Below are positions 18,310 to 42,818 of a stretch of DNA of 64,000 nucleotides, piece by piece. The stretch comes from Acidiferrimicrobium sp. IK (GTDB lineage Bacteria > Actinomycetota > Acidimicrobiia > Acidimicrobiales > Palsa-688). Under the pieces are notes generated by a model. That model was given only the letters and a program-made list of their open reading frames with translations, had not been told where the DNA came from and ran no database searches. The stretch spans positions 186,001 to 250,000 of the forward strand of contig NZ_JAIMCB010000006.1 of NCBI RefSeq assembly GCF_025499425.1. Direction: 5' to 3'. How positions within the stretch are numbered: position 1 is the stretch's first letter; each line of letters begins with the position of its first letter. Position numbers and translations under genes: made by a program.

Positions 18310-18650
18310 CCACGACAACAAGTCCGGCCCGGGTGGCCTTCTTGATCTTGAGTGAGGATCCGGCCCGGGCGCTTCCTGGCTTGGTGATGGCGGCGCGGAT
18401 GAAAGTGAATCGTGGCGCCGACGTGCGCGTCCTGTTCTTCGGTCCGGGCGTGAAGCTGGCGGCCAGTGGGGCGGCCGACGAGCATCTCGACGCTCTTCGC
18501 GCCGCGGGCATCGGGGCGAAGGCATGCTCGGCCAACGTCGAGCAGTACGGCCTTGCCGCCGAGGTTGCGACGCGCCCGCTGGAGCTGCTCGCTGCCGGAG
18601 CAGAGGTCGAGGAGTACGCCCGCCAGGGCTACACGGTGCTCAGTTTTTGA
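18306..18650 (+). CDS. DsrE/TusD-like small protein, copy A
   Basis: The 114-aa protein has a DsrE-like fold pattern: strand VAFLILSEDP, helix LVMAARMKVNRGADV, strand RVLFFGPGVKL, then helix DEHLDALRAAGIGAKACSANVEQ with a single Cys at about residue 77. DsrE/TusD relatives carry persulfide sulfur on a Cys or act in sulfur-transfer complexes. A paralogue lies at 42474-42818 with the Cys kept. The neighbouring rhodanese and methyltransferase genes suggest sulfur handling. The exact donor and acceptor are unknown. Confidence 0.75.
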   Translation: MTTTTSPARVAFLILSEDPARALPGLVMAARMKVNRGADVRVLFFGPGVKLAASGAADEHLDALRAAGIGAKACSANVEQYGLAAEVATRPLELLAAGAEVEEYARQGYTVLSF

Positions 18651-25144: not shown

Positions 25145-25756
25145 TCATCGCTTGGCGGCGATGCCTTGGTAGAAAGATCCGAAGGTGCCAGGCCCGGGTG
25201 TCTGGTAGGTGTTGAGTTCGGAGATGACCAGGCCTGACGTCTCGATCAGTTCGGCTATCGGTCGGTTGAGATGGCATCCGCCGGCAACCTTTCCCCAGAT
25301 CGGAGTGAGGCGGTCCTGCCACGCCGCCACCCTGCGATCAGCCGAGCGGCCGTGCTCGACGAAGTGGAGGCTCCCGCCGGGGCGAAGCACCCGGCGGACC
25401 TCCAGGAGCGCGCGGTCGACGTCAGGAATGGTGCAGAGGGTCCAGGTCACCAGGACGCTGTCCATGGACTGGTCGTCGAGAGGGAGGTCCTGGCCGTCGA
25501 GGCCGATGTACTCGACGGGTATCGGGCTGGCCGCGACGCGGCGGGCGGCGATCTTGCGGGCCGCCGTCGCCGGGTCGACGGCGCGCACTGCGGTGACCGC
25601 TGCCGGGTAGTGGGGGACGTTGCGGCCTGAGCCGAAACCGACCTCGAGGACATTCCCGCTGAGCCCGGATGCCACCTCGGCGCGGATCGCGTCGAAGGGC
25701 TTACCCAAGGCTACGTCGACGAGCCGCGGGAGTACGACGTCGTCGTAGAAGCGCAC
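25145..25756 (-). CDS. class I SAM methyltransferase
   Basis: The 203-aa protein from GTG 25756 (GAGGGG eight bases upstream) begins RFYDDVVLPRLVDVAL and has motif I NVLEVGFGSGRNVPHYP, VRAVDPATAARKIAA, GLDGQDLPLDDQSMDSVLVT (motif II region) and LRPGGSLHFVEHGRS. This resembles the phospholipid/arsenite-like small methyltransferase group often seen with metal or thiol resistance genes. The substrate is unknown. The gene lies next to the CstR-type regulator on the same strand, downstream of it. Confidence 0.85.
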   Translation of the reverse strand: MRFYDDVVLPRLVDVALGKPFDAIRAEVASGLSGNVLEVGFGSGRNVPHYPAAVTAVRAVDPATAARKIAARRVAASPIPVEYIGLDGQDLPLDDQSMDSVLVTWTLCTIPDVDRALLEVRRVLRPGGSLHFVEHGRSADRRVAAWQDRLTPIWGKVAGGCHLNRPIAELIETSGLVISELNTYQTPGPGTFGSFYQGIAAKR

Positions 25757-25844: not shown

Positions 25845-26108
25845 TCAGGCCAGGGACAGGAAAACCTTTTCCATCTTGGCGATGTCGGCTTCGGAGAACG
25901 CGCCATCCGGGGCCAGGCACTGCTTCATCCCCGAAGCGACGATCTTGAAGCCGGCGCGGTCTAAAGCCTTGCTGGCAGCGCACAGCTGGGTGACCACGTC
26001 CTCGCAGTCGCGGCCCTCCTCGATCATGCGAGCCAGACCGCCTACTTGGCCTTCTATCCGACGCAACCGCTTGAGCACGTCGGTGACGATGTCATCGTCT
26101 ATCTTCAC
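25845..26108 (-). CDS. cstR: CstR-type persulfide-sensing repressor (CsoR/DUF156 family)
   Basis: The 87-aa protein from GTG 26108 has the CsoR-family four-helix pattern (VLKRLRRIEGQVGGLARMIEEG). Two cysteines are present where expected: DCEDVVTQL and MKQCL. The His that binds Cu(I) in CsoR (H-x3-C) is replaced (ASGMKQC), and the sequence fits CstR, whose paired Cys form di- or trisulfides with persulfides. It probably represses sulfide-detoxification genes of this island. An inverted repeat over its own start (26119-26137) suggests autoregulation. An upstream start at 26150 is possible. Confidence 0.8.
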   Translation of the reverse strand: MKIDDDIVTDVLKRLRRIEGQVGGLARMIEEGRDCEDVVTQLCAASKALDRAGFKIVASGMKQCLAPDGAFSEADIAKMEKVFLSLA

Positions 26109-26118
26109 GCCCCCACTG

Positions 26119-26137
26119 TACCCAACCTCCCTGGGTA
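26119..26137. promoter_or_regulatory. operator-like inverted repeat upstream of cstR
   Basis: TACCCA and TGGGTA arms are separated by 7 nt just upstream of the regulator start. The half-sites are the CsoR/CstR type. The spacing differs from the 38038-38065 palindrome, so this site is weaker evidence. Confidence 0.4.
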
Positions 26138-26239
26138 TACCGAGGCCCACGAGAGGCCACGCGAGACCGGTGCGGCGGGCGGGGGGTCACAGGGGAGCGC
26201 GCATGTCGCTGCCTGTGGCCGCCCGCCTAGGGTCGGAGG

Positions 26240-26965
26240 GTGGCCGATAGCGCAGAGTCCAATGCAGCCGTCTGGAAGTCCGATGCGGGCATCGTCCAGT
26301 GGGTAGCGACCGCCGAGGAGCGGGAGCGGGGGCGGGTGTGGCCGCGCCGGTTGCTGGCCGAGCTGTTGCCGTTCTCGGAGGCGGATGCCTTCGAGTTTGT
26401 CGATCTCGGCGCCGGGACAGGCGCCGCTGCTCGTGCTGTGCTCGACCGTTACCCCGGGGCGACGGCTGTCCTCGCCGACTACTCCTCGCAGATGATGGAG
26501 GAGGGGAGCCGAGCCCTCGTCGGGTACGACGGGCGGTACCGCTACGTCGAGTTCGACCTTGAAGCTGGTCGCTGGCCGGCTGAGATCACCGGGGGTTTGC
26601 AGGCTGTGATCAGCTCGCTGTGCGTCCATCACCTACCCGACGAGCGCAAACAGGCACTGTTCGAACAGATCCTGGAGCGCCTGGCGCCCGGTGCGTGGTA
26701 CCTCAACTACGACCCGGTCGCGGCCGACGACCCGGCGGTCGAGGCCGCCTGGCGGCGCGTCGTCGACGAGCGCGATCCGGAGGCGGCGGCCAGGAGAGCC
26801 CACCGTGAGCCAGCCGAGCAGGAGCGCTGGGACAACCACGTACGGCACATAGTCCCTCTGGCGCTTCAGCTGGGCTTCTTGCGAGGGGCCGGTTACGAAG
26901 GGGTCGACGCCTACTGGAAAGAGCTCGACCACGCGATCTTCGGGGGACGGCGCCCAACGGGCTGA
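26240..26965 (+). CDS. class I SAM methyltransferase
   Basis: The 241-aa protein has motif I FEFVDLGAGTGAAARAVLD, ATAVLADYSSQMM, YRYVEFDLEAGRWP and AVISSLCVHHLPDERKQALF, the last typical of UbiE-like enzymes acting on small molecules. The N-terminal 45 residues (WVATAEERERGRVWPRRLL) and a C-terminal helix bundle probably make the substrate pocket. Starts at GTG 26240. It is divergent from cstR by about 130 bp and could share its control region. The substrate is unknown. Confidence 0.83.
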   Translation: MADSAESNAAVWKSDAGIVQWVATAEERERGRVWPRRLLAELLPFSEADAFEFVDLGAGTGAAARAVLDRYPGATAVLADYSSQMMEEGSRALVGYDGRYRYVEFDLEAGRWPAEITGGLQAVISSLCVHHLPDERKQALFEQILERLAPGAWYLNYDPVAADDPAVEAAWRRVVDERDPEAAARRAHREPAEQERWDNHVRHIVPLALQLGFLRGAGYEGVDAYWKELDHAIFGGRRPTG

Positions 26966-29399: not shown

Positions 29400-30812
29400 G
29401 CGGGCCGAATAGATGGAGTAGCCGTCGACGTGGCGCGCCACGGCAGTGGCGATGAACGTGGCGGCCATGATCGGCACCATCAGCTGGAAGCCACTGTGGG
29501 TCAGCTCGAGGACCAGCACGAGCCCGGCGAGGGGTGCTTGTATCGAAGCTCCGAGCATGCTGGCACCGCCGACGATGGCAAAGGCCCCGACCGGAGCGCC
29601 TGGCCACAGCATCGACCAGGCGATCCCGGTGAAGGCCCCAAAGACCGCCCCGGTGCTCATGAACGGGGTGAACAGCCCTCCGGACGCGCCCCCGCCGATG
29701 CAGAGAGCGGTGACCAGGGGCTTGAGGGCAAACAGAGCGAAGAGGGCCAGCAGGCTGCCCTGGCCTAAAAATGCCCTGTGGGCCATGTCCTTGCCGTTGC
29801 CGAACAGGCCCGGGTAGGCGATGCCGATGACGCCGAGGACCGAGAAGGCGAGGAGGGGACCGGCTATGGCGGCTCGGCCGCTCAGTCGATGGTGCGACAC
29901 CCAGCCGATGAGCCGGATGTAACCGGAGGCCAGCAGCCCGATTATCGGGGCAGCGAGGAGGGCCCAGACGAACAACGACGTCGTGAAGTGGTAGCTGGGG
30001 ATGTCGAGGTAGGTGGCGTGCTGTGGCAGATAGAGCCAGGCGACGGCGGTGGCGATCCAGGCGCACCCCACCGCCGGCAGGACCACGGGCAGGGTAACCG
30101 AGCCGACCAGGAGCTCGGCGGTGAACAGCGCCCCACCCAAGGGGACGTTGTACACCGCGGCCAGCCCGGCGCCGGCTCCGCAGGCCACCAGCAGACGTCG
30201 CTGCGCGGTGTTGAGCCCCAACCATCCTGACGCGACGCTGCCGGACACGCCGCCCATCAGCTTGGGAGCGGCCTCCCTGCCGATCGAGGCGCCCATACCG
30301 ATGACCACCTCGGAGATCAGCCCGGTCAGCAGGCTGCGCCGCGGCGACAGGCGGCCGTCGCCGGTCCAGATCACCTCGTCCACTTCTGAGTGCTCGCCCT
30401 TGGTCCACTTGCGCAGCAGGTACCAGGCAGGACCGGCAAACGCCCCGGCAGCGGCGAGCGACGCCACCCGGTGCAGACCGCTGGCTCGCTCGACGTGGTT
30501 CTGGAAGTCACCGGGTCCTGTTCCGAACACGAGGTGCTCCAGGCCGAAGAGCACCACCATCATCAGGTCCCCGGCAAGGCCTGTCGCCACCCCGGTGATC
30601 GCCAGCGCCAACCAGAAGCGGGGGGTGAGGGTGGCGTCACCCTCGTCGGTGTTGTTGGGCTGCTCAGTGGCCCCGCGCCCCGACGGCAGGCGTCGAGGTA
30701 CCAGAGGCGCGGGCACCCGGACGCGCCGGAGGTGCGGCGGGGCGCCACCGGACCACAGTCGTGCTGCCCGTCGCCGGGGGCGGGAGCTGGGTGGGTTAGT
30801 GGGGTCGTCCAT
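29382..30812 (-). CDS. CLC-family chloride channel/transporter
   Basis: The 476-aa protein has about ten membrane helices and the CLC selectivity motifs: GMGASIGREAAPKLMG (GREGP-like, here REAAP), CIGGGASGGLFTPFMSTGA, and GGASMLGASIQAPLAG. The external gating Glu of GREGP is present as GREAA. CLC proteins exchange Cl-/H+ or F-, aiding acid resistance or ion balance. The first ~60 residues are basic and Pro-rich, so the true start may lie downstream. It is convergent with the GntR gene and divergent from the persulfide dioxygenase gene. Confidence 0.88.
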   Translation of the reverse strand: MDDPTNPPSSRPRRRAARLWSGGAPPHLRRVRVPAPLVPRRLPSGRGATEQPNNTDEGDATLTPRFWLALAITGVATGLAGDLMMVVLFGLEHLVFGTGPGDFQNHVERASGLHRVASLAAAGAFAGPAWYLLRKWTKGEHSEVDEVIWTGDGRLSPRRSLLTGLISEVVIGMGASIGREAAPKLMGGVSGSVASGWLGLNTAQRRLLVACGAGAGLAAVYNVPLGGALFTAELLVGSVTLPVVLPAVGCAWIATAVAWLYLPQHATYLDIPSYHFTTSLFVWALLAAPIIGLLASGYIRLIGWVSHHRLSGRAAIAGPLLAFSVLGVIGIAYPGLFGNGKDMAHRAFLGQGSLLALFALFALKPLVTALCIGGGASGGLFTPFMSTGAVFGAFTGIAWSMLWPGAPVGAFAIVGGASMLGASIQAPLAGLVLVLELTHSGFQLMVPIMAATFIATAVARHVDGYSIYSARLPAHR

Positions 30813-30885
30813 GGTTGGGTGTGCTGATCAGGCCGGTGGCTCGGCCCCGAGCCGCCGGATCGCACCTGGCTCGTGCGATCGATGG

Positions 30886-30917
30886 TTGACAGACGCGGAC
30901 CGAAGCGATTTTATAGT
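30886..30917 (+). promoter_or_regulatory. putative promoter of the persulfide dioxygenase operon
   Basis: TTGACA at 30886-30891 is followed by an AT-rich TTTTATAGT. TTTTAT is at 17-bp spacing (30909-30914) and TATAGT at 20 bp (30912-30917). This AT-rich island stands out in high-GC sequence ~70 bp before GTG 30988. Confidence 0.5.
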
Positions 30918-30987
30918 ACTGACATTCGCACATAGCCGGCTGGGCCATGGCCCTGGCGGCGTGACGGTAGTGGCGAAAGGTGGTGTC

Positions 30988-32358
30988 GTGGCTGAGATCG
31001 TGACGATCGAGACACCGGCGTTGGGGGACCGCAGCTACCTCGTGCATGACGCCGAGGTGGCGGTGGTAATCGATCCTCAGCGCGACATCGACCGGGTGCT
31101 CGACGCGGCGGAAGCACTCGGCGTGCGCGTCACACACGTGTTGGAGACGCACCTGCACAACGACTACGTGACCGGGGGGCTGGCGTTGGCGCAGCGGCTC
31201 GGCGCTGCTTATGTAGTGCCGGAGGGAGATCAGGTTGCGTTCGATCGGGTGCCTGCTCGGGATGGTGACCGCATCGCTACCGGTCGGTTAGTGGTCACGC
31301 CAGTGCATACCCCCGGGCACACACCCAACCACATGGCGTACGTCGTCGGCGAAGACGGGGGGCGGCAGGTGGCGGTGTTCACGGGCGGCTCAATGCTCTT
31401 CGGGGCAGTCGGGCGCACGGACCTGGTCGCCGACGAGCGCACCGACGAGCTGACCCGGGCCCAGTACCGGTCGGTGCGGCGTCTCGCCACCGAGCTGCCC
31501 GACGAGGTGTCGGTTCACCCCACCCATGGGTTCGGGAGCTTCTGTTCGGCCACCAAGACCAGCGGTGACGCGTCCACGATCGGCCAGGAGCGCACCCAAA
31601 ACCTGGCGTTGGTGACCGAGGACGAGGATGCCTTCGTCCAACAGCTCCTCGCCGGCTTGGGCGCCTACCCGAGCTACTACGTCCACATGGGGGCGCTCAA
31701 CGCCGCCGGACCGGAGGCGCCGGACCTGTCCCTGCCACAGGAGGTCGACGCCGAGGAGCTGCGCCGACGGGTCGCCGCGGGCGAATGGGTCGTCGACCTG
31801 CGCCAACGACAGGCGTTCGCCCGGCTGCACATGGCGGGGACGGTGTCGATCGAGATCGGAGATCCCTTCGCCACCTACTTCGGTTGGACGCTGCCCTGGC
31901 ATGCACCGGTGACGTTGGTGGGCGACAGCAGGGAGCAGGTGGCTGCGGCGCGCCGCCAGCTCGTCCGGATCGGTGTGGACCACCTGGCCGGTGCCGCGGC
32001 GGGCGACATCGAGGAGATGGCCGGCGGGCACACGTCGCGCTACCGGGTGGCCAAGTTCGCCGACCTGGCCGAGACCTACGGCCGCGACGGCGTGGTGGTC
32101 TTGGACGTGCGCCGCCCCGACGAGTGGAGCGAGGGCCACCTGGCCGGTGCCGCCCACATCCCGTTCTGGGAGTTGGCTGACCGGGTGGGCGAGGTGCCTG
32201 ACGGTGAGGTGTGGGTGCACTGCGCCAGCGGGTTTCGGGCCTCGATCGCGTCGTCCATCCTGGACCGGGCCGGCCGCCAGGCTGTGCTGATCGACGACGA
32301 CTGGGAGCAGGCCAGGGACGTGGGCCTGCCGATAGCCTCCCCGACCGGCGCCGCTTAG
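30988..32358 (+). CDS. cstB: CstB-like persulfide dioxygenase with two rhodanese domains
   Basis: The 456-aa protein from GTG 30988 (AAAGG seven bases before) has a metallo-beta-lactamase persulfide dioxygenase domain (residues 1-~235; THLHNDYVTGG, HTPGHTPNH, FTGGSMLFGAVGRTDL), a rhodanese-like domain without a catalytic Cys (~255-345, VVDLRQRQAFARLHMAG), and a C-terminal rhodanese with active loop CASGFRAS (Cys at ~411). This is the CstB layout, in which persulfide is oxidised to sulfite and thiosulfate. It fits the CstR-type repressor in the same island. Iron is the usual metal. It heads a run of genes continuing into the Fe-S/Mo genes. Confidence 0.87.
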   Translation: MAEIVTIETPALGDRSYLVHDAEVAVVIDPQRDIDRVLDAAEALGVRVTHVLETHLHNDYVTGGLALAQRLGAAYVVPEGDQVAFDRVPARDGDRIATGRLVVTPVHTPGHTPNHMAYVVGEDGGRQVAVFTGGSMLFGAVGRTDLVADERTDELTRAQYRSVRRLATELPDEVSVHPTHGFGSFCSATKTSGDASTIGQERTQNLALVTEDEDAFVQQLLAGLGAYPSYYVHMGALNAAGPEAPDLSLPQEVDAEELRRRVAAGEWVVDLRQRQAFARLHMAGTVSIEIGDPFATYFGWTLPWHAPVTLVGDSREQVAAARRQLVRIGVDHLAGAAAGDIEEMAGGHTSRYRVAKFADLAETYGRDGVVVLDVRRPDEWSEGHLAGAAHIPFWELADRVGEVPDGEVWVHCASGFRASIASSILDRAGRQAVLIDDDWEQARDVGLPIASPTGAA

Positions 32359-32387
32359 CCCACCCGAGCGACCAAGAGGGAGGACTC

Positions 32388-33932
32388 TTGCGTTACGGCT
32401 TCGCAATTGACCAGCGGACATGTATCGGCTGTCACGCGTGCACGGTGGCGTGCAAGACCGAGCATCAGATACCGGTCGGGCAGTTCCGCACGTGGGTCAA
32501 GTACGTCGACAAGGGGGAGTGGCCGGCCTCGACCCGTGCGTTCGGGGTGATGCGTTGCAACCACTGCACCGACGCCCCGTGCGTCAAGATCTGTCCCACG
32601 CAGGCGCTGTTCAAGCGTGACGACGGGATCGTCGACTTTGACAAGGATCGTTGCATTGGCTGCAAGAGCTGCATGCAGGGTTGTCCGTACGACGCGATCT
32701 ACATAGACGAGGACACACACACCGCGGCCAAGTGCAACTACTGCGCCCATCGGGTCGACGACGGCCTCGAGCCGGCGTGCGTGGTGGTCTGCCCTACCCA
32801 TTCCATCTGGGCCGGCGACCTCGACGACCCGACGAGCGGGGTCGCCCGGCTGGTGGCCACCAACCCCACCGCGGTCCGGTCCCCGGAGCAGGACACCGGA
32901 CCCAACGTCTTCTACCTCGGAGCCGACCGGGCGGTGCTCGACCCGACGCTGGCCCCCGTGGACGGCTCGTACCTGTGGGCCGAGCCCGACGCCCAACGCC
33001 GGGCAGTGGCCGCCGAGTTTGCCCCTGACGCGGTCAGCGGTGCCAAGACGACGCTCAACACCGCTCACCCACGCCCTTGGGGCTGGCGGGTCACCACCTA
33101 CCTGTGGACCAAAGGGGTCGGGTCCGGGGCGCTCCTCGTGACCTCCGGGGCTCTCCTGGCAGGCATCCCCCCGATGGGGGTGCTGCGCCTCGCCGCGCCG
33201 GCGGTGGCCGTGGGCTTCACCGCCGTCACCGGCGGCCTGCTGGTCTGGGACCTCAAGCGTCCCGAACGGTTCTTGTACATCTTCACCAAGCCCAACCCGA
33301 GTTCGTGGCTGTTCTGGGGCTCGGTGTGCCTGGCCGGCTATTCAGCGGTGGGGGGGACGTGGTTGGCCGCTGCCCTGGCTGACTCCGCTGGCCTCCTCGG
33401 ACCCGCCGGTTTCGCCCGGGTCGTGGGCTCCCTGCGCTGGGCGGCGATCCCGACTGCGGTGGCCGCCGCCGGCTACACCGCCTTTCTCTTCGCCCAAGCC
33501 GAGGGCCGGGACCTTTGGCAGTCCAAGATGCTGCTGCCGCACCTCGTCGTGCAGGCCGTCCAGGGCGGCTCGGGCGTACTGCTGGCCCTGTCGGCGGTGA
33601 CCGGCGGGCCGCCGGCTGTGACCCGGATGCTCGCCGGGACCTTCGTGGCGGCGTCAGCCGCCAACACTGCTTCGCTGGCCCTCGAGTACGGCACCGGGCA
33701 TGAGACCAAGCAAGCCGCGGCCGCCGCGCGGATGATCACCCATGGTCGCTACCGCAAGCTGTTCTGGGCCGGGGTGGTCGGTGTCGGGGGCCTGGCGGCC
33801 ACCTTGGCGGTGCCGGGTATCAAGGGCCGCCATCTGCGCCGTGCTGCGCTGGGCGGCCTCCTCGGCCAGGCCTCCCTGATCGCCTACGAGTCGGTGTTCG
33901 TCCGGGCCGGACAGGACGTGCCGCTCTCGTGA
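32388..33932 (+). CDS. ferredoxin-NrfD fusion (electron-transfer and membrane quinone subunits in one)
   Basis: The 514-aa protein is read from TTG 32388 with GAGGGAGG just upstream. Residues 1-~155 are a four-cluster [4Fe-4S] ferredoxin of the PsrB/PhsB/DmsB kind (RTCIGCHACTVACKTEH, CNHCTDAPCVKICPTQA, RCIGCKSCMQGCPYDAI, CNYCAHRVDDG). Residues ~240-514 are an NrfD/PsrC-like membrane domain with about eight helices (YIFTKPNPSSWLFWGSVCL). The two are usually separate genes. It would link the membrane quinone pool to the molybdopterin enzyme encoded next. No signal peptide is seen. Confidence 0.87.
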   Translation: MRYGFAIDQRTCIGCHACTVACKTEHQIPVGQFRTWVKYVDKGEWPASTRAFGVMRCNHCTDAPCVKICPTQALFKRDDGIVDFDKDRCIGCKSCMQGCPYDAIYIDEDTHTAAKCNYCAHRVDDGLEPACVVVCPTHSIWAGDLDDPTSGVARLVATNPTAVRSPEQDTGPNVFYLGADRAVLDPTLAPVDGSYLWAEPDAQRRAVAAEFAPDAVSGAKTTLNTAHPRPWGWRVTTYLWTKGVGSGALLVTSGALLAGIPPMGVLRLAAPAVAVGFTAVTGGLLVWDLKRPERFLYIFTKPNPSSWLFWGSVCLAGYSAVGGTWLAAALADSAGLLGPAGFARVVGSLRWAAIPTAVAAAGYTAFLFAQAEGRDLWQSKMLLPHLVVQAVQGGSGVLLALSAVTGGPPAVTRMLAGTFVAASAANTASLALEYGTGHETKQAAAAARMITHGRYRKLFWAGVVGVGGLAATLAVPGIKGRHLRRAALGGLLGQASLIAYESVFVRAGQDVPLS

Positions 33933-33963
33933 AACCAGCGCCGTCGTCGTGAAAGGGGACCAC

Positions 33964-36831
33964 GTGCCCACCAACCAGCCGCGCCCGACAGTCGTGGCGC
34001 CCGACCCGTCCGGGGTGGCACTCCCCGGGGCTCGCCGCCACGAGCAGCTCGCCAACTTCCCGCCGGTCGGCGATTGGGACCACCACGTCGAGCACGACGC
34101 CAAGGCCCATCCCCGCAAGGTGGCGCACGAGTACATGCTGGTGCCGACCACCTGCTTCAACTGTGAGTCGGGCTGCGGCCTGCTGGCCTACGTCGACAAG
34201 TCCGACCTGTCGATCCGCAAGCTGGAAGGCAACCCTGCCCACCCGGGCTCCCGTGGCCGTAACTGCGCCAAGGGGCCGGCGACGGTCAACCAGATCGACG
34301 ATCCCGAGCGGATCCTTTATCCGCTGCGACGCGTCGGCGCCCGCGGTGAGGGCAACTGGGAGCGGGTGTCGTGGGACGAGGCGCTCGACGACATTGCCGG
34401 GCGGATCCGTCGGTCGATCACCGAGGGCCGCCCCGAGGAGGTGATGTACCACGTCGGTCGCCCCGGCGAGGACGGGTTCGCCGAACGCTTCCTCACCGCG
34501 TGGGGTGTGGACGGGCACAACAGCCACACCAACGTGTGCTCCTCGGGGGCCCGGTTCGGGATGACGCTGTGGACCGGCTACGACCGGCCCAGCCCCGACC
34601 ACGCCAACGCCAAGGTGATCCTGTTGCTGTCGAGCCATCTCGAGACCGGCCACTACTTCAACCCGCACGCCCAGCGGATCATGGAAGGCAAGCTCGACGG
34701 CGCCAAGCTCGTCGTCGTCGACCCCCGCCTGTCCAACACCGCCGCGCACGCCGACCTGTGGCTGTCGCCGTGGCCGGGTTCGGAGGCCGCCATGCTGCTG
34801 TCTGTGGCGTCGTTCCTGCTCCGCACCCGCCAGATCGACACCGACTACATGCGCCGCTGGTTCAACTGGTCGGATTACCTGGCCAACCTCCATCCCGACG
34901 ACCCGGTGGACTTCGACGTCTTCCTCGACCGGCTCGAAGCCGACTACTCGCAATACACCTTCGAGTTCGCCGCCGCGGAAGCCCAGATCGAGCCCGAACG
35001 CATCGAGGAGCTCGCCCGGCTCGTCGCCGGGGCCGACCACCGCCTCTCCGCACACGTGTGGCGCTCGGCGTGTGCCGGCAATCTGGGCGGTTGGCAGGTG
35101 GCGCGAGCCCTGTGGTTCTTGCTGGCGTTGACCGGCAGCATCGGGACCGTCGGTGGCACCAGCCCCAACGGATGGGACAAGTTCATCCCCAAGGGACCCA
35201 CCATCCCCGAGGGCCACGACCATTGGAACGAGTTGACGTGGCCCGGTGAGTACCCCCTGGCCACCAACGAGATGTCGATCCTCCTGCCGCACTTCCTGGA
35301 GGAGGGCCGCGGGAGGCTGGAGGTGTACTTCTCCCGGGTGTGGAACCCGATCTGGACCGCCCCGGACGGGTTCACTTGGCTCGACGCCCTCACCGATTCC
35401 GACAAGGTCGGCCTGCACGTGGCGCTCACCCCCACCTGGTCGGAGACCGCCACCTTCGCTGACTACGTGCTGCCGATGGGCCACGCCCCCGAACGCCACG
35501 ACACCATGTCCTACGAGACCCACGCCGGCAAGTGGCTGAGCTTTCGCCAGCCGGTACGGCGTGTGGCCATGCAAAAGCTGGGGATCCCGGTCGACGACAC
35601 CCGCGACGCGAACCCGGGTGAGGTGTGGGAGGAGAACGAGTTCTGGTTCGACCTGTCATGGCGGATCGACCCCGACGGGGCTTTGGGGATACGCCGCCAC
35701 TTCGAGTCGCCGTACCGTCCCGGTGAAAAGGTCACCGTCGACGAGTACTACCGCTGGATCTTCGAGAACCAGGTGCCGGGGTTGCCCGAACGGGCAGCCG
35801 AGGCCGGCCTCACCTGCCTCGAGTACATGCGCAAGTTCGGGGCGGTGGCGGTCGGTGACGCCGCTTACCGCCTCGACGAACGCACCCTCGACGGCGCCGA
35901 GACCGAGGGCGCGCAGGTCGATCAGCTCGGGGTGCTGCGCCGCCCCGTCGGCCTCGACGACGAGCCGCCGCTAATCGGCGAGGCCGGGTCGCTCGGCGTG
36001 CGCCACGACGACGGCACCGTGACCGTCGGCTTCCCGACCCCCTCGCGGCGGTTGGAGATCTACTCGGCCACGATGCGCGACTGGGGCTGGCCCGAGTACG
36101 CGGCCCCCGGCTACATCGAGTCGCACATCTCCCGCCGCCAGATCGACCTCGAGGCCGGCCAGCTCGTGTTGGTGCCCACCTTCCGCCTCCCGGTCCTCAT
36201 CCACACCCGCTCCGGCAATGCCAAGTACCTCAACGAGATCGCCAACAGCCACCCCTTGTGGTTGCATCCCGACGACGCCCAACGCCACCAGGTCGGCACC
36301 GGAGGCCTGGTGAGGATCAACACCACCATCGGCTACTTCGTGGCCCGGGTCTGGGTGACCGAAGCCATCCGTCCGGGGGTGTGCGCCCTCAGCCACCACA
36401 TGGGTCGCTGGCGCCTCCACGACACCGACGGCAGCCGGTGGGTCACCGGTCAGGTCGACCTCACCCACCCCGACGGCCCCGACACTTGGCTGTTGCGCTA
36501 CCGCAGCGGCGTCGAGCCGTTCACCTCCGACGATCCCGACAGCGAGCGAATCTACTGGACCGACCCCGGCGTCCACCAGAACCTCGCCTTCGCCGTCCAA
36601 CCCGACCCACTGTCGGGCATGAACTGCTGGCTGCAGAAGGTCACCGTCGAGCACACCCAAGCCGGTGACCACTACGGCGACGTGTACGTCGACCGGCGCC
36701 GCTCGCGCCAGGTCTACCAGGAATGGCTGTCTATGACCCGCTCCACCACCGGCCCCGAGGGCCAACGCCGTCCCGAGTTCATGATGCGCCCGGTCAAGCC
36801 CAAGCGCAGGGCCTACCGGGTCGCGCAGTGA
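33964..36831 (+). CDS. molybdopterin oxidoreductase (PhsA/PsrA/DmsA-like)
   Basis: The 955-aa protein starts at GTG 33964 with AAAGGGG five bases before. A [4Fe-4S] motif is at residues ~64-101 (CFNCESGCG, then NCAKGP). A likely Mo-ligand Cys is at ~192 in NVCSSGARFG, and bis-MGD binding segments follow (VVVDPRLSNTAAHADLW, PTFRLPVLIHTRSGNAKYL). It belongs to the DMSO reductase superfamily of polysulfide/thiosulfate/tetrathionate-type enzymes. No twin-arginine signal is present, unlike most such catalytic subunits, so it probably works in the cytoplasm. The sulfur-gene context points to a sulfur substrate (inference). Confidence 0.87.
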   Translation: MPTNQPRPTVVAPDPSGVALPGARRHEQLANFPPVGDWDHHVEHDAKAHPRKVAHEYMLVPTTCFNCESGCGLLAYVDKSDLSIRKLEGNPAHPGSRGRNCAKGPATVNQIDDPERILYPLRRVGARGEGNWERVSWDEALDDIAGRIRRSITEGRPEEVMYHVGRPGEDGFAERFLTAWGVDGHNSHTNVCSSGARFGMTLWTGYDRPSPDHANAKVILLLSSHLETGHYFNPHAQRIMEGKLDGAKLVVVDPRLSNTAAHADLWLSPWPGSEAAMLLSVASFLLRTRQIDTDYMRRWFNWSDYLANLHPDDPVDFDVFLDRLEADYSQYTFEFAAAEAQIEPERIEELARLVAGADHRLSAHVWRSACAGNLGGWQVARALWFLLALTGSIGTVGGTSPNGWDKFIPKGPTIPEGHDHWNELTWPGEYPLATNEMSILLPHFLEEGRGRLEVYFSRVWNPIWTAPDGFTWLDALTDSDKVGLHVALTPTWSETATFADYVLPMGHAPERHDTMSYETHAGKWLSFRQPVRRVAMQKLGIPVDDTRDANPGEVWEENEFWFDLSWRIDPDGALGIRRHFESPYRPGEKVTVDEYYRWIFENQVPGLPERAAEAGLTCLEYMRKFGAVAVGDAAYRLDERTLDGAETEGAQVDQLGVLRRPVGLDDEPPLIGEAGSLGVRHDDGTVTVGFPTPSRRLEIYSATMRDWGWPEYAAPGYIESHISRRQIDLEAGQLVLVPTFRLPVLIHTRSGNAKYLNEIANSHPLWLHPDDAQRHQVGTGGLVRINTTIGYFVARVWVTEAIRPGVCALSHHMGRWRLHDTDGSRWVTGQVDLTHPDGPDTWLLRYRSGVEPFTSDDPDSERIYWTDPGVHQNLAFAVQPDPLSGMNCWLQKVTVEHTQAGDHYGDVYVDRRRSRQVYQEWLSMTRSTTGPEGQRRPEFMMRPVKPKRRAYRVAQ

Positions 36832-37084: not shown

Positions 37085-37144
37085 GCGGCCCGCTGGCCTG
37101 ACGCGGCCCGCTGGCCTCAGGCGGCCCGCTGGCCTCAGGCGGCC
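37085..37144 (+). repeat. 18-bp tandem repeat at the thioredoxin 3' end
   Basis: Three tandem copies of an 18-bp unit GCGGCCCGCTGGCCTCAG (first copy ends GAC instead of CAG) plus a partial fourth occupy 37085-37144. The minus-strand thioredoxin stop codon (37135-37137) falls in the third copy. Confidence 0.8.
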
Positions 37145-37563
37145 GGCCGGTCCAGGTGCCGGCTCAGCCACGATTCGAGCGCCGGGCGGCCTGCCGCGCC
37201 GACCTGGCGGTCGACCTCCTCGCCGTGGCGCAGCAGGACGAGGCACGGGATGCCCTGGACCCCGTACCGGGCGGCGAGCCCGGGGGCGTCGTCGACGTTG
37301 ACCTTGACGACCTTGAGCCGGCCGGCCAGGTCGGCGCCGAGGGCCTCGACCGTGGGGCTGACCGCCCGGCAAGGCCCGCACCACGGGGCCCAGAAGTCCA
37401 CCAGCACCGGCACCGACGTGTCGACCACGGCATCGAATGACGGCGCGCCCGCCTCGACCGACCAGGGCAGCGCCACCTTGCATTTGGCGCAGCGGGGGGT
37501 GCCGCCGGCGGCGTCGGGCACCCGGTTGCGGGCATGGCACGCCGGGCAGGCGACGGTGCTCAC
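37135..37563 (-). CDS. thioredoxin-2-like protein with N-terminal zinc ribbon
   Basis: The 142-aa protein from GTG 37563 begins VACPACHARNRVPD and has a second CAKC, making a CxxC...CxxC zinc ribbon as in thioredoxin 2. The thioredoxin core follows: VLVDFWAPWCGPCRAVSP with the WCGPC active site at about residue 60, and GIPCLVLLRHG with the cis-Pro (IP). It reduces disulfides or protein persulfides. The GTG overlaps the DUF302 stop by 4 bp (GTGA), so both genes are co-translated and likely under the 38038-38065 operator. Confidence 0.92.
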   Translation of the reverse strand: MSTVACPACHARNRVPDAAGGTPRCAKCKVALPWSVEAGAPSFDAVVDTSVPVLVDFWAPWCGPCRAVSPTVEALGADLAGRLKVVKVNVDDAPGLAARYGVQGIPCLVLLRHGEEVDRQVGAAGRPALESWLSRHLDRPAA

Positions 37564-37967
37564 CCGCGGTCCCGGTCGGCGTCGGCCAGATCGGTGAGGG
37601 CTTCGCCGATCAGACGGGCTGCCTCGTCGGCGATAGGCCCGAGCGCCGGGCTGTCGGGGACCGTCGCCAAGATCGACGGGTCCAGCGCGTCGACGATGAT
37701 GCCGTTGTCGCCTTGGCGGACCACCACGTTGCACGGCAGGAGGGCCCCGACCTGGCGATCGGCGTCGAGGGCACGCTTGGCAAGGCCGGGGTTGCAGGCT
37801 CCGATGATCAGGTAAGGCTCCATGTCCGCGCCGAGCTTGTCGTGCAGCGTGGCTCGGACGTCGATCTCGGTGAGGGTACCGAACCCCTTGGCTTTGAACG
37901 CCTCTTTCACCTTGGCGACGGCCTCGTCGTAGGTGGCGTCGAGGGTGATGGTCTTGACATATCCCAT
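37560..37967 (-). CDS. DUF302 protein
   Basis: The 135-aa protein has the DUF302 pattern (YVKTITLDATYDEAVAKVKE, GFGTLTEIDVRATLHDKLG, PYLIIGACNPGLAKRALDAD, GALLPCNVVVRQG) with two Cys at conserved sites. An AAGGAGGAG lies six bases before ATG 37967. The biochemical role of DUF302 is not settled; it is often found near sulfur and rhodanese genes. Coupled to the downstream thioredoxin gene; its promoter region faces the MMPL gene across the palindromic operator. Confidence 0.88.
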   Translation of the reverse strand: MGYVKTITLDATYDEAVAKVKEAFKAKGFGTLTEIDVRATLHDKLGADMEPYLIIGACNPGLAKRALDADRQVGALLPCNVVVRQGDNGIIVDALDPSILATVPDSPALGPIADEAARLIGEALTDLADADRDRG

Positions 37968-38037
37968 GGCTTGCTCCTCCTTGGTTGGGGGTACTTACCC
38001 ATCGGTCGGGTCAGCGCACCTGCGGTCCCCGGTTGTA

Positions 38038-38065
38038 TGAATCATACCCCAGGGGGTATGATTCA
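38038..38065. promoter_or_regulatory. perfect 28-bp palindrome, CstR/CsoR-type operator
   Basis: Arms TGAATCATACCCC and GGGGTATGATTCA (13 bp each, perfect) are separated by AG. The TACCCC/GGGGTA core is the CsoR/CstR operator type. It lies in the divergent gap between DUF302 (start 37967) and the MMPL gene (start 38094), so it can control both directions. The likely regulator is the CstR-type protein at 25845. Confidence 0.75.
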
Positions 38066-38093
38066 GTCATGGGAAGACCGAGGAGGACGACCG

Positions 38094-40295
38094 TTGTCGA
38101 CAACTGAGCGGACCCAGGCCAGGGTGGCCAAGCCCGGCAACCCCGAGGCAGGTGAAGGGCCTACAGGGCTGTTCGCCAGGATCGGGCATTGGACGGGCCT
38201 GCACCTACGTCCCGTGCTCGTGGTGTGGTTGATGGTGCTGGTCGTCTTCGGCGTCTTCGCTCCCAAGGTGGAGTCGGCGCTCGCCGGGGCCGGCTGGCAG
38301 GACTCGACCAGCCAATCGGTGCACGCCCGCCAGCTCATCCGCCGAGACTTCTCCGGTCTCGGCTCGAGCGCCCTGCAGGTGGTCGTGGTCGACCGCAGCG
38401 GCCCGATCGCCGCGGACCCGGCCGCAATTGCGACGCTCTCCAAGGTCGAAGCGACCCTGCGCGCCAACAAAGATGTCTCGACCGTGGTCCCCCCCCAGGC
38501 GGGCTCGTCGATCTCAGCTGACGGGCGCACCGCTGTGGTAATCGCCGGCGCGGCCGCCAGCACTAACCAGATGGTCACCGCCGCCGATCACCTTGCGACA
38601 CCCCTCTCGCGCCTTGGCCACAGCCACATCAGCGTCACCCTCACCGGTGACAGCGCCCTGTGGGCCAACTTCAACTCGGCCAACCACTCGGCGATGCTCC
38701 GCTCGGAGATGTTGTCCTGGCCCGTCACGTTGGCAATCCTGGCCGTGGCGTTCGGCAGCCTGATCGCTGCCGGCCTGCCCCTGATGCTGACAATGGCCGG
38801 ACTGCTCGTCGCCGCCGGCGCCCTGGTGCTGGCCAACCACATCGCTCCGGTGTCGATCTGGGCCCTCAACTTCGCGCTGATGTTCTCCCTGGCACTCGGG
38901 ATCGACTACGCCCTGTTCCTGGTCGTGCGCTTCCGCTCCGCGCTCGAGCATCGCGGAGTTCAACCCGGGGACCGTGGCGCCGCAGCCGCAGCCGCAGCCG
39001 AGACCCTCGCCACGGCCGGCAAGGCGGTGGCGTTCTCCGCGGTCACCGTGCTGGCCTCGCTCGCTTCGATCCTCATCGTGCCGAGTCCCGCATTCCGCTC
39101 GATGGCCATAGGGATCATGCTGTCGGTCCTCGCCGTGCTGGCCGCCACCCTCACCCTGCTCCCCGCAGTGCTGGGCAAGCTCGGGACCCGCATCAACTCG
39201 GGGCGCGTGCGCCTCCGTCGGGGCGGCCCCGACCTCCCCGCCGGGCACAAGCTCGAGCAGCGCCTCCACGCCTGGGGCCGGTTGCTGTGGGCTCACCCCT
39301 GGCCGGCGGCCGTCGCCGGGCTGGTGGTGCTTCTCCTCGCTGCCGCTCCGGTGATCGGCCTGCGGACATCCATGCCGTCGATCACGATCATCCCGGCTTC
39401 TTCCAACGCCCGGGTCGGCTACAACCAGGTCTCCGCCGCCTACGGAGTTGGGTTCCCCGGCACCCTGCAGGTGGTGGTGCCCGCCGGCGAGCAGGCTGCC
39501 GCCCTCGCAGCGGCACGCCGCACCCCCGGTGTCGCCGCCGTGATGCCCGGCCCGACCAACGCCGGCTCGACCATGGACCAGGTCGTCCCCACCACCGGGC
39601 CGTCCGCCGCGGCGACGGGTGCAACCATTGACCGGCTGCGCCGCAACCTGCCTCCCGGCGCCCTGGTCGGAGGGGCGGCGGCAGAAAACCATGATCTGCA
39701 GCACGCCCTGGCTAGCCGCACGCCCATCGTGTTCGGGATGCTCGCGGCCATGGGCTTCATCCTGCTGCTGGTCGCCCTCGGCGCGCCGCTGGTGGCCTTC
39801 GGCGGGGTGGTGATCACCGGGCTTTCGGTTGCCGGCGCCTTCGGGATCGCCCGGCTGATCTTCCAGAACGGGGACTTGTCGGGGCTGTTGGGCTTCACGC
39901 CGCAAGGCTTCGTCGACGCCTGGGGCCCGCTGTTCTTCGGGGCGATGGTCTTCGGCGTCGCCATGGATTACACCCTGTTCCTCCTCTCGGCGGCCAAGGA
40001 GCGCTACGAGACCCACGCCGACCCCGAAAAGTCGATGGTGGGATCGGTCCAGACCTCCGGGCGGGTGGTGGTCTCAGCTGCGGCCGTGATGATCGCAGTG
40101 TTTCTCACCTTCGCCCTCTCTGGACCGCTCGCCCCCAAGGAGATGGGTGTGATCCTCGCCGTGGCCGTAGCGCTCGACGCCCTAGTCGTCCGCCTGGTGC
40201 TCCTGCCGGTGCTACTGCGCCTCACCCATCACGCCGCATGGCACCAACCCCACTGGCTCGGTCGGATCCTGCCGACCGTCCGCTTCGCCCACTGA
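38094..40295 (+). CDS. MMPL-family (RND) membrane transporter
   Basis: The 733-aa protein is read from TTG 38094, seven bases after AGGAGG. One membrane helix near residue 40 (VLVVWLMVLVVFGVFAP) is followed by a large extracytoplasmic domain and five helices with the RND acidic pair in ALGIDYALFLVVRFR. A second periplasmic loop and a second five-helix set follow (GVAMDYTLFLLSAAKERYE). MMPL proteins export lipids or small hydrophobic compounds with proton motive force. The start lies 29 bp from the palindromic operator, so sulfide/persulfide control is likely. The substrate is unknown. Confidence 0.9.
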   Translation: MSTTERTQARVAKPGNPEAGEGPTGLFARIGHWTGLHLRPVLVVWLMVLVVFGVFAPKVESALAGAGWQDSTSQSVHARQLIRRDFSGLGSSALQVVVVDRSGPIAADPAAIATLSKVEATLRANKDVSTVVPPQAGSSISADGRTAVVIAGAAASTNQMVTAADHLATPLSRLGHSHISVTLTGDSALWANFNSANHSAMLRSEMLSWPVTLAILAVAFGSLIAAGLPLMLTMAGLLVAAGALVLANHIAPVSIWALNFALMFSLALGIDYALFLVVRFRSALEHRGVQPGDRGAAAAAAAETLATAGKAVAFSAVTVLASLASILIVPSPAFRSMAIGIMLSVLAVLAATLTLLPAVLGKLGTRINSGRVRLRRGGPDLPAGHKLEQRLHAWGRLLWAHPWPAAVAGLVVLLLAAAPVIGLRTSMPSITIIPASSNARVGYNQVSAAYGVGFPGTLQVVVPAGEQAAALAAARRTPGVAAVMPGPTNAGSTMDQVVPTTGPSAAATGATIDRLRRNLPPGALVGGAAAENHDLQHALASRTPIVFGMLAAMGFILLLVALGAPLVAFGGVVITGLSVAGAFGIARLIFQNGDLSGLLGFTPQGFVDAWGPLFFGAMVFGVAMDYTLFLLSAAKERYETHADPEKSMVGSVQTSGRVVVSAAAVMIAVFLTFALSGPLAPKEMGVILAVAVALDALVVRLVLLPVLLRLTHHAAWHQPHWLGRILPTVRFAH

Positions 40296-42246: not shown

Positions 42247-42477
42247 GTGCACGACGAGTTAGTGACGTGGCTCGTCGTCGCGGTGTCCGTCATAGCCGTC
42301 CTCGCGTGGTCCCAACCGCATGGAGCTGGCTGGCGCCTGGGCAGCCAATGCGGGCCTGCATGTGGGAAGCGCAAGCGGACGGGCTCGTCAGCGCACCGGC
42401 CGGTTCTAACGTTCGTGGATATGCCGACGGGCAGAACAGAACTCTCTCTTGACCCTACCGAGGAGGAAAACCGATGA
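42247..42477 (+). CDS. small single-pass membrane protein, copy B
   Basis: This 76-aa protein, starting at GTG 42247, has helix ELVTWLVVAVSVIAVLAWS, motif GQCGPACGKRKR and tail TFVDMPTGRTELSLDPTEEE. It is clearly homologous to the product of 18040-18309. An in-frame TGA lies 9 nt upstream, at the place where copy A reads through, so copy B must start here. The stop overlaps the DsrE start (ATGA), as in copy A. Conservation of the ORF beside a dead methyltransferase copy indicates selection on this pair. Confidence 0.7.
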   Translation: MHDELVTWLVVAVSVIAVLAWSQPHGAGWRLGSQCGPACGKRKRTGSSAHRPVLTFVDMPTGRTELSLDPTEEENR

Positions 42478-42818
42478 ACACGACAACAAGTCCAGCCAGG
42501 GTGGCGTTCTTGATCTTGAGTGATGATCCTGCCAGGGTGCTTCCTGGCTTGGTGATGGCGGCGCGGATGAAAGCGAATCGTGGTGCGGACGTGCGCGTCC
42601 TCTTCTTCGGGCCTGGTGTGAAGCTGGCAGCTAGTGGGACGGCCGATGAGCAGCTCGACGCCCTCCGTGCGGCTGGTATCGGGGCGAAGGCCTGCTCGGC
42701 CAACGTCGAGCAGTACGGAGTGGCCGCCGAAATTGCGACGCGCCCACTGGAGCTGCTCGCCGCAGGAGCAGAGGTCGAGGAGTACGCTCGCCAGGGCTAT
42801 ACGGTGCTCAGTTTCTGA
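42474..42818 (+). CDS. DsrE/TusD-like small protein, copy B
   Basis: The 114-aa protein differs from the 18306-18650 product at about a dozen positions, mostly conservative (for example SDDPARVL for SEDPARAL, TADEQLDALRA for AADEHLDALRA). The Cys in KACSANVEQYG is kept. An AGGAGG lies a few bases before ATG 42474. As with copy A, it probably handles sulfane sulfur. Both copies intact may mean dosage or two different partners. Confidence 0.75.
   Translation: MNTTTSPARVAFLILSDDPARVLPGLVMAARMKANRGADVRVLFFGPGVKLAASGTADEQLDALRAAGIGAKACSANVEQYGVAAEIATRPLELLAAGAEVEEYARQGYTVLSF

What the first reader, a model, noticed from the sequence alone, without database searches (positions are those of the whole stretch)
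38038..38065. Perfect 28-bp palindrome controlling a divergent DUF302-thioredoxin / MMPL unit
Arms TGAATCATACCCC and GGGGTATGATTCA are perfect with a 2-nt spacer, between two divergent genes. The TACCCC/GGGGTA core is the CsoR/CstR type. It ties an RND-type exporter, DUF302 and thioredoxin to sulfide or copper sensing. What the MMPL protein would export (for example sulfur-containing lipid or thiol) is open.
Basis: partly seen in the sequence, partly recalled or inferred. Interest (0 to 1): 0.7.

Follow-up and report, generated by a model that had tools for sequence, protein, structure and literature searches.

The report
Sulfur-stress switch beside an MmpL exporter
The palindrome is very probably the docking site of a repressor that senses reactive sulfur; relatives show that the same switch follows one particular branch of MmpL-type membrane exporters across many actinobacteria, which suggests that these otherwise unexplained pumps work against sulfur stress.

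Summary
The 28-bp palindrome is real: the longest perfect one in the window, with no chance match in shuffles. Only its 16-bp core, ATACCCC-AG-GGGGTAT, is conserved; the outer arms occur only here. The core fits the 16-bp site (ATACCn6GGTAT) bound in vitro by the sulfane-sulfur sensor ScCsoR of Streptomyces coelicolor. In this genome all six perfect ATACCC-N4-GGGTAT sites, and two near-perfect ones, precede sulfur-type genes: DUF302-thioredoxin/MMPL, thioredoxin-cstR-DUF302, rhodanese-persulfide dioxygenase, a second MMPL, TauE/SafE, SQR-like, another cstR, OsmC. Three CstR-type regulators (two cysteines, no copper histidine) are encoded; two copper csoR genes have sites one base longer. So: a CstR persulfide regulon rather than copper. 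The unexpected result: the MMPL protein belongs to a distinct, nearly cysteine-free clade that carries this operator in 63 of 91 loci and a CstR-type neighbour in 44 of 91, against 0 of 39 for other MMPL loci. It spans Acidimicrobiia, Thermoleophilia, Streptomycetaceae and plasmids of Rhodococcus, Nocardia and Tsukamurella. I found no paper describing a CstR-controlled MMPL. The cargo is unproven; a thiol persulfide or other sulfane-sulfur species is my best guess. No binding or expression was measured.

The parts
38038..38065 (.). 28-bp perfect palindrome (arms 13, spacer 2)
38044..38059 (.). 16-bp core ATACCCCAGGGGGTAT, predicted CstR operator; the only part conserved among sites
   Evidence: fits the ScCsoR site ATACCn6GGTAT (PMC7533328)
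38057..38062 (+). TATGAT, candidate -10 of the MMPL promoter (weak TTGTAT at 38034-38039, 17 nt upstream)
   Evidence: read from sequence; did not pass the consensus scan
38041..38046 (-). TATGAT, candidate -10 of the DUF302-Trx promoter
   Evidence: 9 of 12 matches, spacer 18
37560..37967 (-). DUF302 protein, two cysteines (ACNP, LPCN) also present in the solved relatives
37135..37563 (-). Thioredoxin, start overlapping the DUF302 stop
38094..40295 (+). MMPL/RND exporter, 733 aa, TTG start after GAGGAGG, no cysteine
25845..26150 (-). CstR-type DUF156 regulator encoded in the window, one of three in the genome; reading frame as listed, the true start may be an internal GTG

Best explanation
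The palindrome is a CstR-type operator placed over two back-to-back promoters. With little reactive sulfur in the cell, a CstR-type repressor (most likely the one encoded in the thioredoxin-cstR-DUF302 operon, whose own operator has the same core) sits on ATACCCCAGGGGGTAT and blocks both DUF302-thioredoxin and MMPL. When persulfides or polysulfides rise, its two cysteines react, it leaves the DNA, and both transcripts start together with the rest of a regulon: persulfide dioxygenase, rhodanese, TauE/SafE, SQR-like, OsmC, a second MMPL and cstR itself. Thioredoxin (and perhaps DUF302 through its two cysteines) would reduce or carry sulfane sulfur. The MMPL protein is a proton-driven RND exporter of a sulfur-stress clade; my best guess for its cargo is a low-molecular-weight thiol persulfide, its processed product, or another sulfane-sulfur species. 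Shown by computation: the site, its gene set, the regulator type, the conservation with the MMPL clade. Inferred: binding, persulfide trigger, which CstR acts, direction and cargo of transport. The confidence given is for the regulatory part; for the cargo it is about 0.3.
For: Core fits the ScCsoR site ATACCn6GGTAT, shown by EMSA to be lost on polysulfide treatment (PMC7533328). Six of six perfect ATACCC-N4-GGGTAT sites in 5.08 Mb, plus two near-perfect ones, precede sulfur-type genes, and the core pattern read backwards gives none. Three DUF156 proteins have two cysteines 29 apart and no histidine at the copper position. Clade against control MMPL loci: operator 63/91 against 0/39, CstR-type neighbour 44/91 against 0/39, DUF302 17 against 0, PDO 21 against 0. 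Operators concentrate upstream of the MMPL gene: 35/77 within 350 bp, 0/77 inside, 2/73 downstream, shuffles 0. Annotated plasmids of Nocardia, Rhodococcus and Tsukamurella repeat the association.
Against: No binding, expression or transport data exist for this organism. Many clade members, most of all in the Thermoleophilia, show no site at <=1 mismatch near the gene, so control there may differ or lie upstream in an operon. The window's own cstR lacks a standard N4 site. The window's persulfide dioxygenase-rhodanese gene (30049-32358) has no matching site. Loci are related by descent, so Fisher p-values overstate independence.
Confidence: 0.82

Rival explanations
1. Copper-responsive CsoR operator: the palindrome is bound by one of the three copper CsoR proteins, and MMPL, DUF302 and thioredoxin belong to copper resistance.
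For: CsoR and CstR operators are similar, and three true CsoR genes are in the genome.
Against: Two copper csoR genes have 15-nt TACCC-N5-GGGTA sites upstream, while the window site is 14-nt N4 like the sulfur genes. MMPL neighbours are CstR type in 44 loci and CsoR type in 3.
Confidence: 0.06
2. The regulation is by CstR as proposed, but the MMPL protein exports lipids or repairs the envelope (as MmpL3 does) and is induced as a general envelope response to sulfide, without moving any sulfur compound.
For: The closest solved relatives are lipid exporters (MmpL3, TM 0.82); no cargo data exist.
Against: The tight link of one clade with a persulfide sensor, PDO, TauE, SQR-like and DUF302 genes, and the lack of such links in other MMPL loci; near absence of cysteine in the clade; PIG-L thiol-type enzymes across the same operator in some members. 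None of this names the cargo.
Confidence: 0.4
3. The inverted repeat acts as an RNA hairpin or terminator, not as a protein site.
For: A perfect 13-bp inverted repeat with a 2-nt loop could form a hairpin.
Against: It lies between two divergent gene starts, and no terminator-like site was found there; the conserved part is an invariant letter sequence; dispersed copies share the core sequence, not the long stem.
Confidence: 0.03

Closest known systems
ScCsoR sulfane-sulfur circuit of Streptomyces coelicolor (sco0618-sco0621; PMC7533328)
   Same: 16-bp site ATACCn6GGTAT; CsoR-like regulator with two cysteines 29 apart; control of PDO-rhodanese, rhodanese, TauE and itself; actinobacterial.
   Different: No MMPL, DUF302 or thioredoxin is described in the circuit; here the regulon is dispersed over several contigs and the genome has three such regulators.
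CstR of Staphylococcus aureus (cst operon; PMC5480029)
   Same: Two-cysteine DUF156 repressor controlling tauE, cstA, cstB (persulfide dioxygenase-sulfurtransferase) and sqr.
   Different: Distant sequence; one operon; no MMPL. I could not read its operator sequence (papers not held).
TTHA1953 of Thermus thermophilus (PMC10318464)
   Same: CsoR-family regulator of sulfur genes, including a thioredoxin and a methyltransferase, some in divergent pairs.
   Different: Different consensus (TACNNTACNNNNGTANNGTA); controls the Sox pathway; no MMPL.
MmpL3 and mycobacterial MmpL exporters
   Same: MMPL/RND fold and Asp-Tyr pairs in both membrane halves.
   Different: About 22% identity in the structural match; below all NCBIfam cut-offs; nearly cysteine-free; under CstR-type operators.
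SUL module of Arthrobacter plasmids (PMC6305408)
   Same: CsoR-family regulator with sulfur dioxygenase, rhodaneses, TauE/SafE and DUF302.
   Different: Its transporter is described as a major facilitator, not MMPL.

Membership tests
CstR persulfide-sensor regulon | DUF156 repressor with two cysteines and without the copper histidine encoded in the genome | tested here: met
   Three of six DUF156 proteins; Gly in place of His four residues before the second Cys in the three I read
CstR persulfide-sensor regulon | Operator of the type ATACCn6GGTAT at the regulated promoter | tested here: met
   38044-38059 fits letter for letter
CstR persulfide-sensor regulon | Regulon holds PDO, rhodanese, TauE and/or SQR | tested here: met
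   Sites precede all four kinds; the SQR-like protein is a PF07992 member below NCBIfam cut-offs
CstR persulfide-sensor regulon | Regulator binds the site and is released by persulfide or polysulfide | not testable with these tools
   Needs purified protein
Copper CsoR regulon | Operator spacing as upstream of the copper csoR genes of this genome (TACCC-N5-GGGTA) | tested here: not met
   Window site is N4; csoR sites at C34:287118 and C47:55597 are N5
Copper CsoR regulon | Cys-His-Cys regulator linked to the gene pair | tested here: not met
   The three CsoR genes lie on other contigs; of clade neighbours 44 are CstR type and 3 CsoR type
MMPL/RND exporter | PF03176 match and RND fold | tested here: met
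   199 bits against a cut-off of 20.5; TM 0.82 to MmpL3, model mean pLDDT 75.5
MMPL/RND exporter | Asp-Tyr pairs of the proton relay in both halves | tested here: met
   D271-Y272 and D625-Y626 invariant in 13 members, aligned with the same motifs of MmpL3
MmpL3 (trehalose monomycolate exporter) | NCBIfam NF052608 score above cut-off (1400 bits) | tested here: not met
   161.9 bits

The most novel reading that the evidence does not exclude
The clade is a dedicated sulfane-sulfur exporter: a nearly cysteine-free MmpL pump, switched on by CstR, that expels persulfide- or polysulfide-bearing small thiols (perhaps after processing by the PIG-L enzymes of the MshB/BshB/Mca family that several members face across the same operator). 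It would be a bacterial export route for sulfane sulfur beside oxidation by PDO and sulfite export by TauE.
Probability: 0.3. Interest if true: 0.85.

Novelty: new variant of a known kind. Interest (0 to 1): 0.58.

Why it matters
MMPL proteins are numerous in actinobacteria and most have no known cargo. A clade tied by operator and neighbourhood to a persulfide sensor gives a whole group of them a physiological trigger and a testable role, in organisms from acid soils to plasmid-bearing Rhodococcus, Nocardia and Tsukamurella. The genome also suggests that CstR and CsoR keep apart by one base of operator spacing, which can be tested directly.

Tried and rejected
The 28-bp palindrome as the functional unit was rejected: the outer arms are not conserved. 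Copper CsoR control was judged unlikely on spacing and regulon. Terminator or hairpin was rejected. NCBIfam gave no specific family for this MMPL clade and none for DUF302. Searches for MMPL with persulfide, CstR, rhodanese or DUF302-thioredoxin found no paper describing the link; only open-licence papers are held, and three CstR papers cited in those I read could not be opened. Four further TACCC-N4-GGGTA matches (C1, C3, C16, C17) lack both A/T end bases and were set aside as chance, without annotating their surroundings.

Full report
Observation. The palindrome stands at 38038-38065 as described. It is the longest perfect one in the window and has no chance match in 100 shuffles. It separates DUF302-thioredoxin (minus strand) from an MMPL gene (plus strand). 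The MMPL gene most likely starts at TTG 38094 after GAGGAGG. Each arm holds TATGAT reading outward, so the operator probably sits on two overlapping promoters; the minus-strand one passes a consensus scan, the plus-strand one is weak.

Core and regulon. Searching the genome (5.08 Mb, 47 contigs) for ATACCCCNNGGGGTAT with one mismatch gave five sites, and none for the pattern read backwards. With TACCC-N4-GGGTA the list grows to eight sites that keep at least one A/T end base; six of them are perfect ATACCC-N4-GGGTAT. They precede: DUF302-Trx and MMPL (window); thioredoxin-cstR-DUF302 (C45:12617); rhodanese and persulfide dioxygenase-rhodanese (C45:18098); OsmC, with an FtsX gene on the other side (C45:20864); a second MMPL, with a CMD-PIG-L pair on the other side (C46:51926); TauE/SafE (C46:54882); a cstR (C45:68687); and an SQR-like flavoprotein (C45:68398).

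Regulators. The genome has six DUF156 proteins. Three carry the copper set Cys-His-Cys. Three (window 25845-26150, C45:13081, C45:68475) carry two cysteines 29 apart and no histidine, as CstR does (the C45:13081 protein aligned with 7mq1/7mq3, entries whose depositor name is 'CsoR' and which I take from memory to be the streptococcal CstR). Two of the copper csoR genes have 15-nt TACCC-N5-GGGTA sites just upstream (C34:287118, C47:55597), one base longer than the sulfur sites. Spacing would thus separate the two regulons in one genome; this rests on few sites and is a prediction. The window cstR has no N4 site; upstream of it lies ATACCC-N9-GGGTAC.

Literature anchor. ScCsoR of S. coelicolor, a CsoR-like protein with Cys37 and Cys66, binds ATACCn6GGTAT, is released by polysulfide, and controls PDO, TauE, rhodanese and itself (PMC7533328). 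The window core ATACC-CCAGGG-GGTAT fits that sequence. S. aureus CstR controls tauE, cstA, cstB and sqr (PMC5480029). TTHA1953 is a CsoR-family regulator of sulfur oxidation in Thermus (PMC10318464).

The MMPL clade. Searching 247 genomes of the class with the MMPL protein gave a gap between matches above 410 bits and those below 300. The twelve loci above the gap that were examined there (window MMPL plus eleven from other genomes) all hold an operator at <=1 mismatch, as does the second MMPL of the window's genome; the next 18 MMPL loci hold none. A scan of named genomes gave 80 more loci: Acidimicrobiaceae, Aciditerrimonas, Thermoleophilia/Solirubrobacterales, Paraconexibacter, Kitasatospora, Streptomyces. 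In all, 63 of 91 clade loci against 0 of 39 control MMPL loci have an operator, and 44 against 0 a CstR-type neighbour. Sites concentrate upstream of the gene: 35 of 77 within 350 bp, 0 of 77 inside, 2 of 73 downstream; Markov shuffles gave 0.0. In a FastTree tree the clade is one side of a fully supported branch, with the program's warning about long branches. Letter identity of the 49 best upstream sites is confined to the 16-bp core; as these were picked by that core, the telling part is that the flanks are not conserved. In plasmids of Nocardia farcinica, Rhodococcus and Tsukamurella the MMPL (about 53% identical) stands beside a 'metal-sensitive transcriptional regulator' of CstR type, with DUF302 in three of the four loci read, and with FAD/NAD(P)-oxidoreductase, MBL-fold, rhodanese and TauE genes in some. 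Loci are related by descent, so these counts are not independent events.

What the exporter may do. The predicted fold matches MmpL3 (mean pLDDT 75.5; TM 0.82) and both Asp-Tyr pairs are kept, so proton-driven transport is likely. 89 of 96 clade proteins have no cysteine and none has more than one; controls range from 0 to 3, with 4 of 18 at zero. A pump without thiols would suit a persulfide-rich cell, though cysteine is scarce in these proteins in general. PIG-L proteins related to MshB, BshB and Mca (all far below the equivalog cut-offs) face the MMPL across the operator in the second MMPL locus of this genome and in L114, L121 and L128. This suggests small-thiol chemistry and is why I favour a thiol persulfide or related species as cargo; it is inference. 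No bacterial persulfide exporter turned up in the papers held.

Verdict. Observation confirmed; regulator class supported, with sulfur rather than copper as the signal; a conserved CstR-MMPL association, apparently undescribed in the papers held; exporter cargo unknown.

Noticed in passing
L012:6693-7756 (C46), also L114, L121, L128: PIG-L (MshB/BshB/Mca-related) gene divergent from MMPL with the operator between; in this genome paired with a CMD/AhpD-like gene. PIG-L relatives occur in 8 of 91 clade loci against 0 of 39 controls; an annotated PIG-L gene lies about 5 kb from the MMPL on the R. antarcticus plasmid.
   Followed up: partly
window 25145-25756 (-) and L012:10188-10799 (+): Paralogous class I methyltransferases (64% identical) next to a cstR and behind the second MMPL; relatives in 11 of 91 clade loci against 0 of 39 controls. 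They recall METTL7-type thiol methyltransferases (from memory, not tested).
   Followed up: partly
window 26240-26965 (+) and L011:7854-8609 (-): Another pair of paralogous methyltransferases (75% identical), each divergent from a cstR gene or its operon.
   Followed up: partly
window 38069-38107 (+): ATG at about the expected MMPL transcript start opens a 12-codon frame (MGRPRRTTVVDN) overlapping the TTG start; a possible leaderless leader peptide.
   Followed up: no
window 37987-38000: Everted half-sites GGGGGTACTTACCC just upstream of the DUF302 start; may be chance.
   Followed up: no
L184 (Tsukamurella plasmid), upstream of 8941: Same DUF302-cstR/MMPL divergence, but the palindromes there read CCCCCTGGGGGG, twice, without the ATA/TAT ends; possibly a co-evolved variant site.
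   Followed up: no
window 18315-18650 and 42474-42818: Two very similar DsrE-family genes 24 kb apart.
   Followed up: no
window 30049-36831: PDO-rhodanese, 4Fe-4S/NrfD fusion frame and molybdopterin oxidoreductase in a row, without a matching CstR operator.
   Followed up: no
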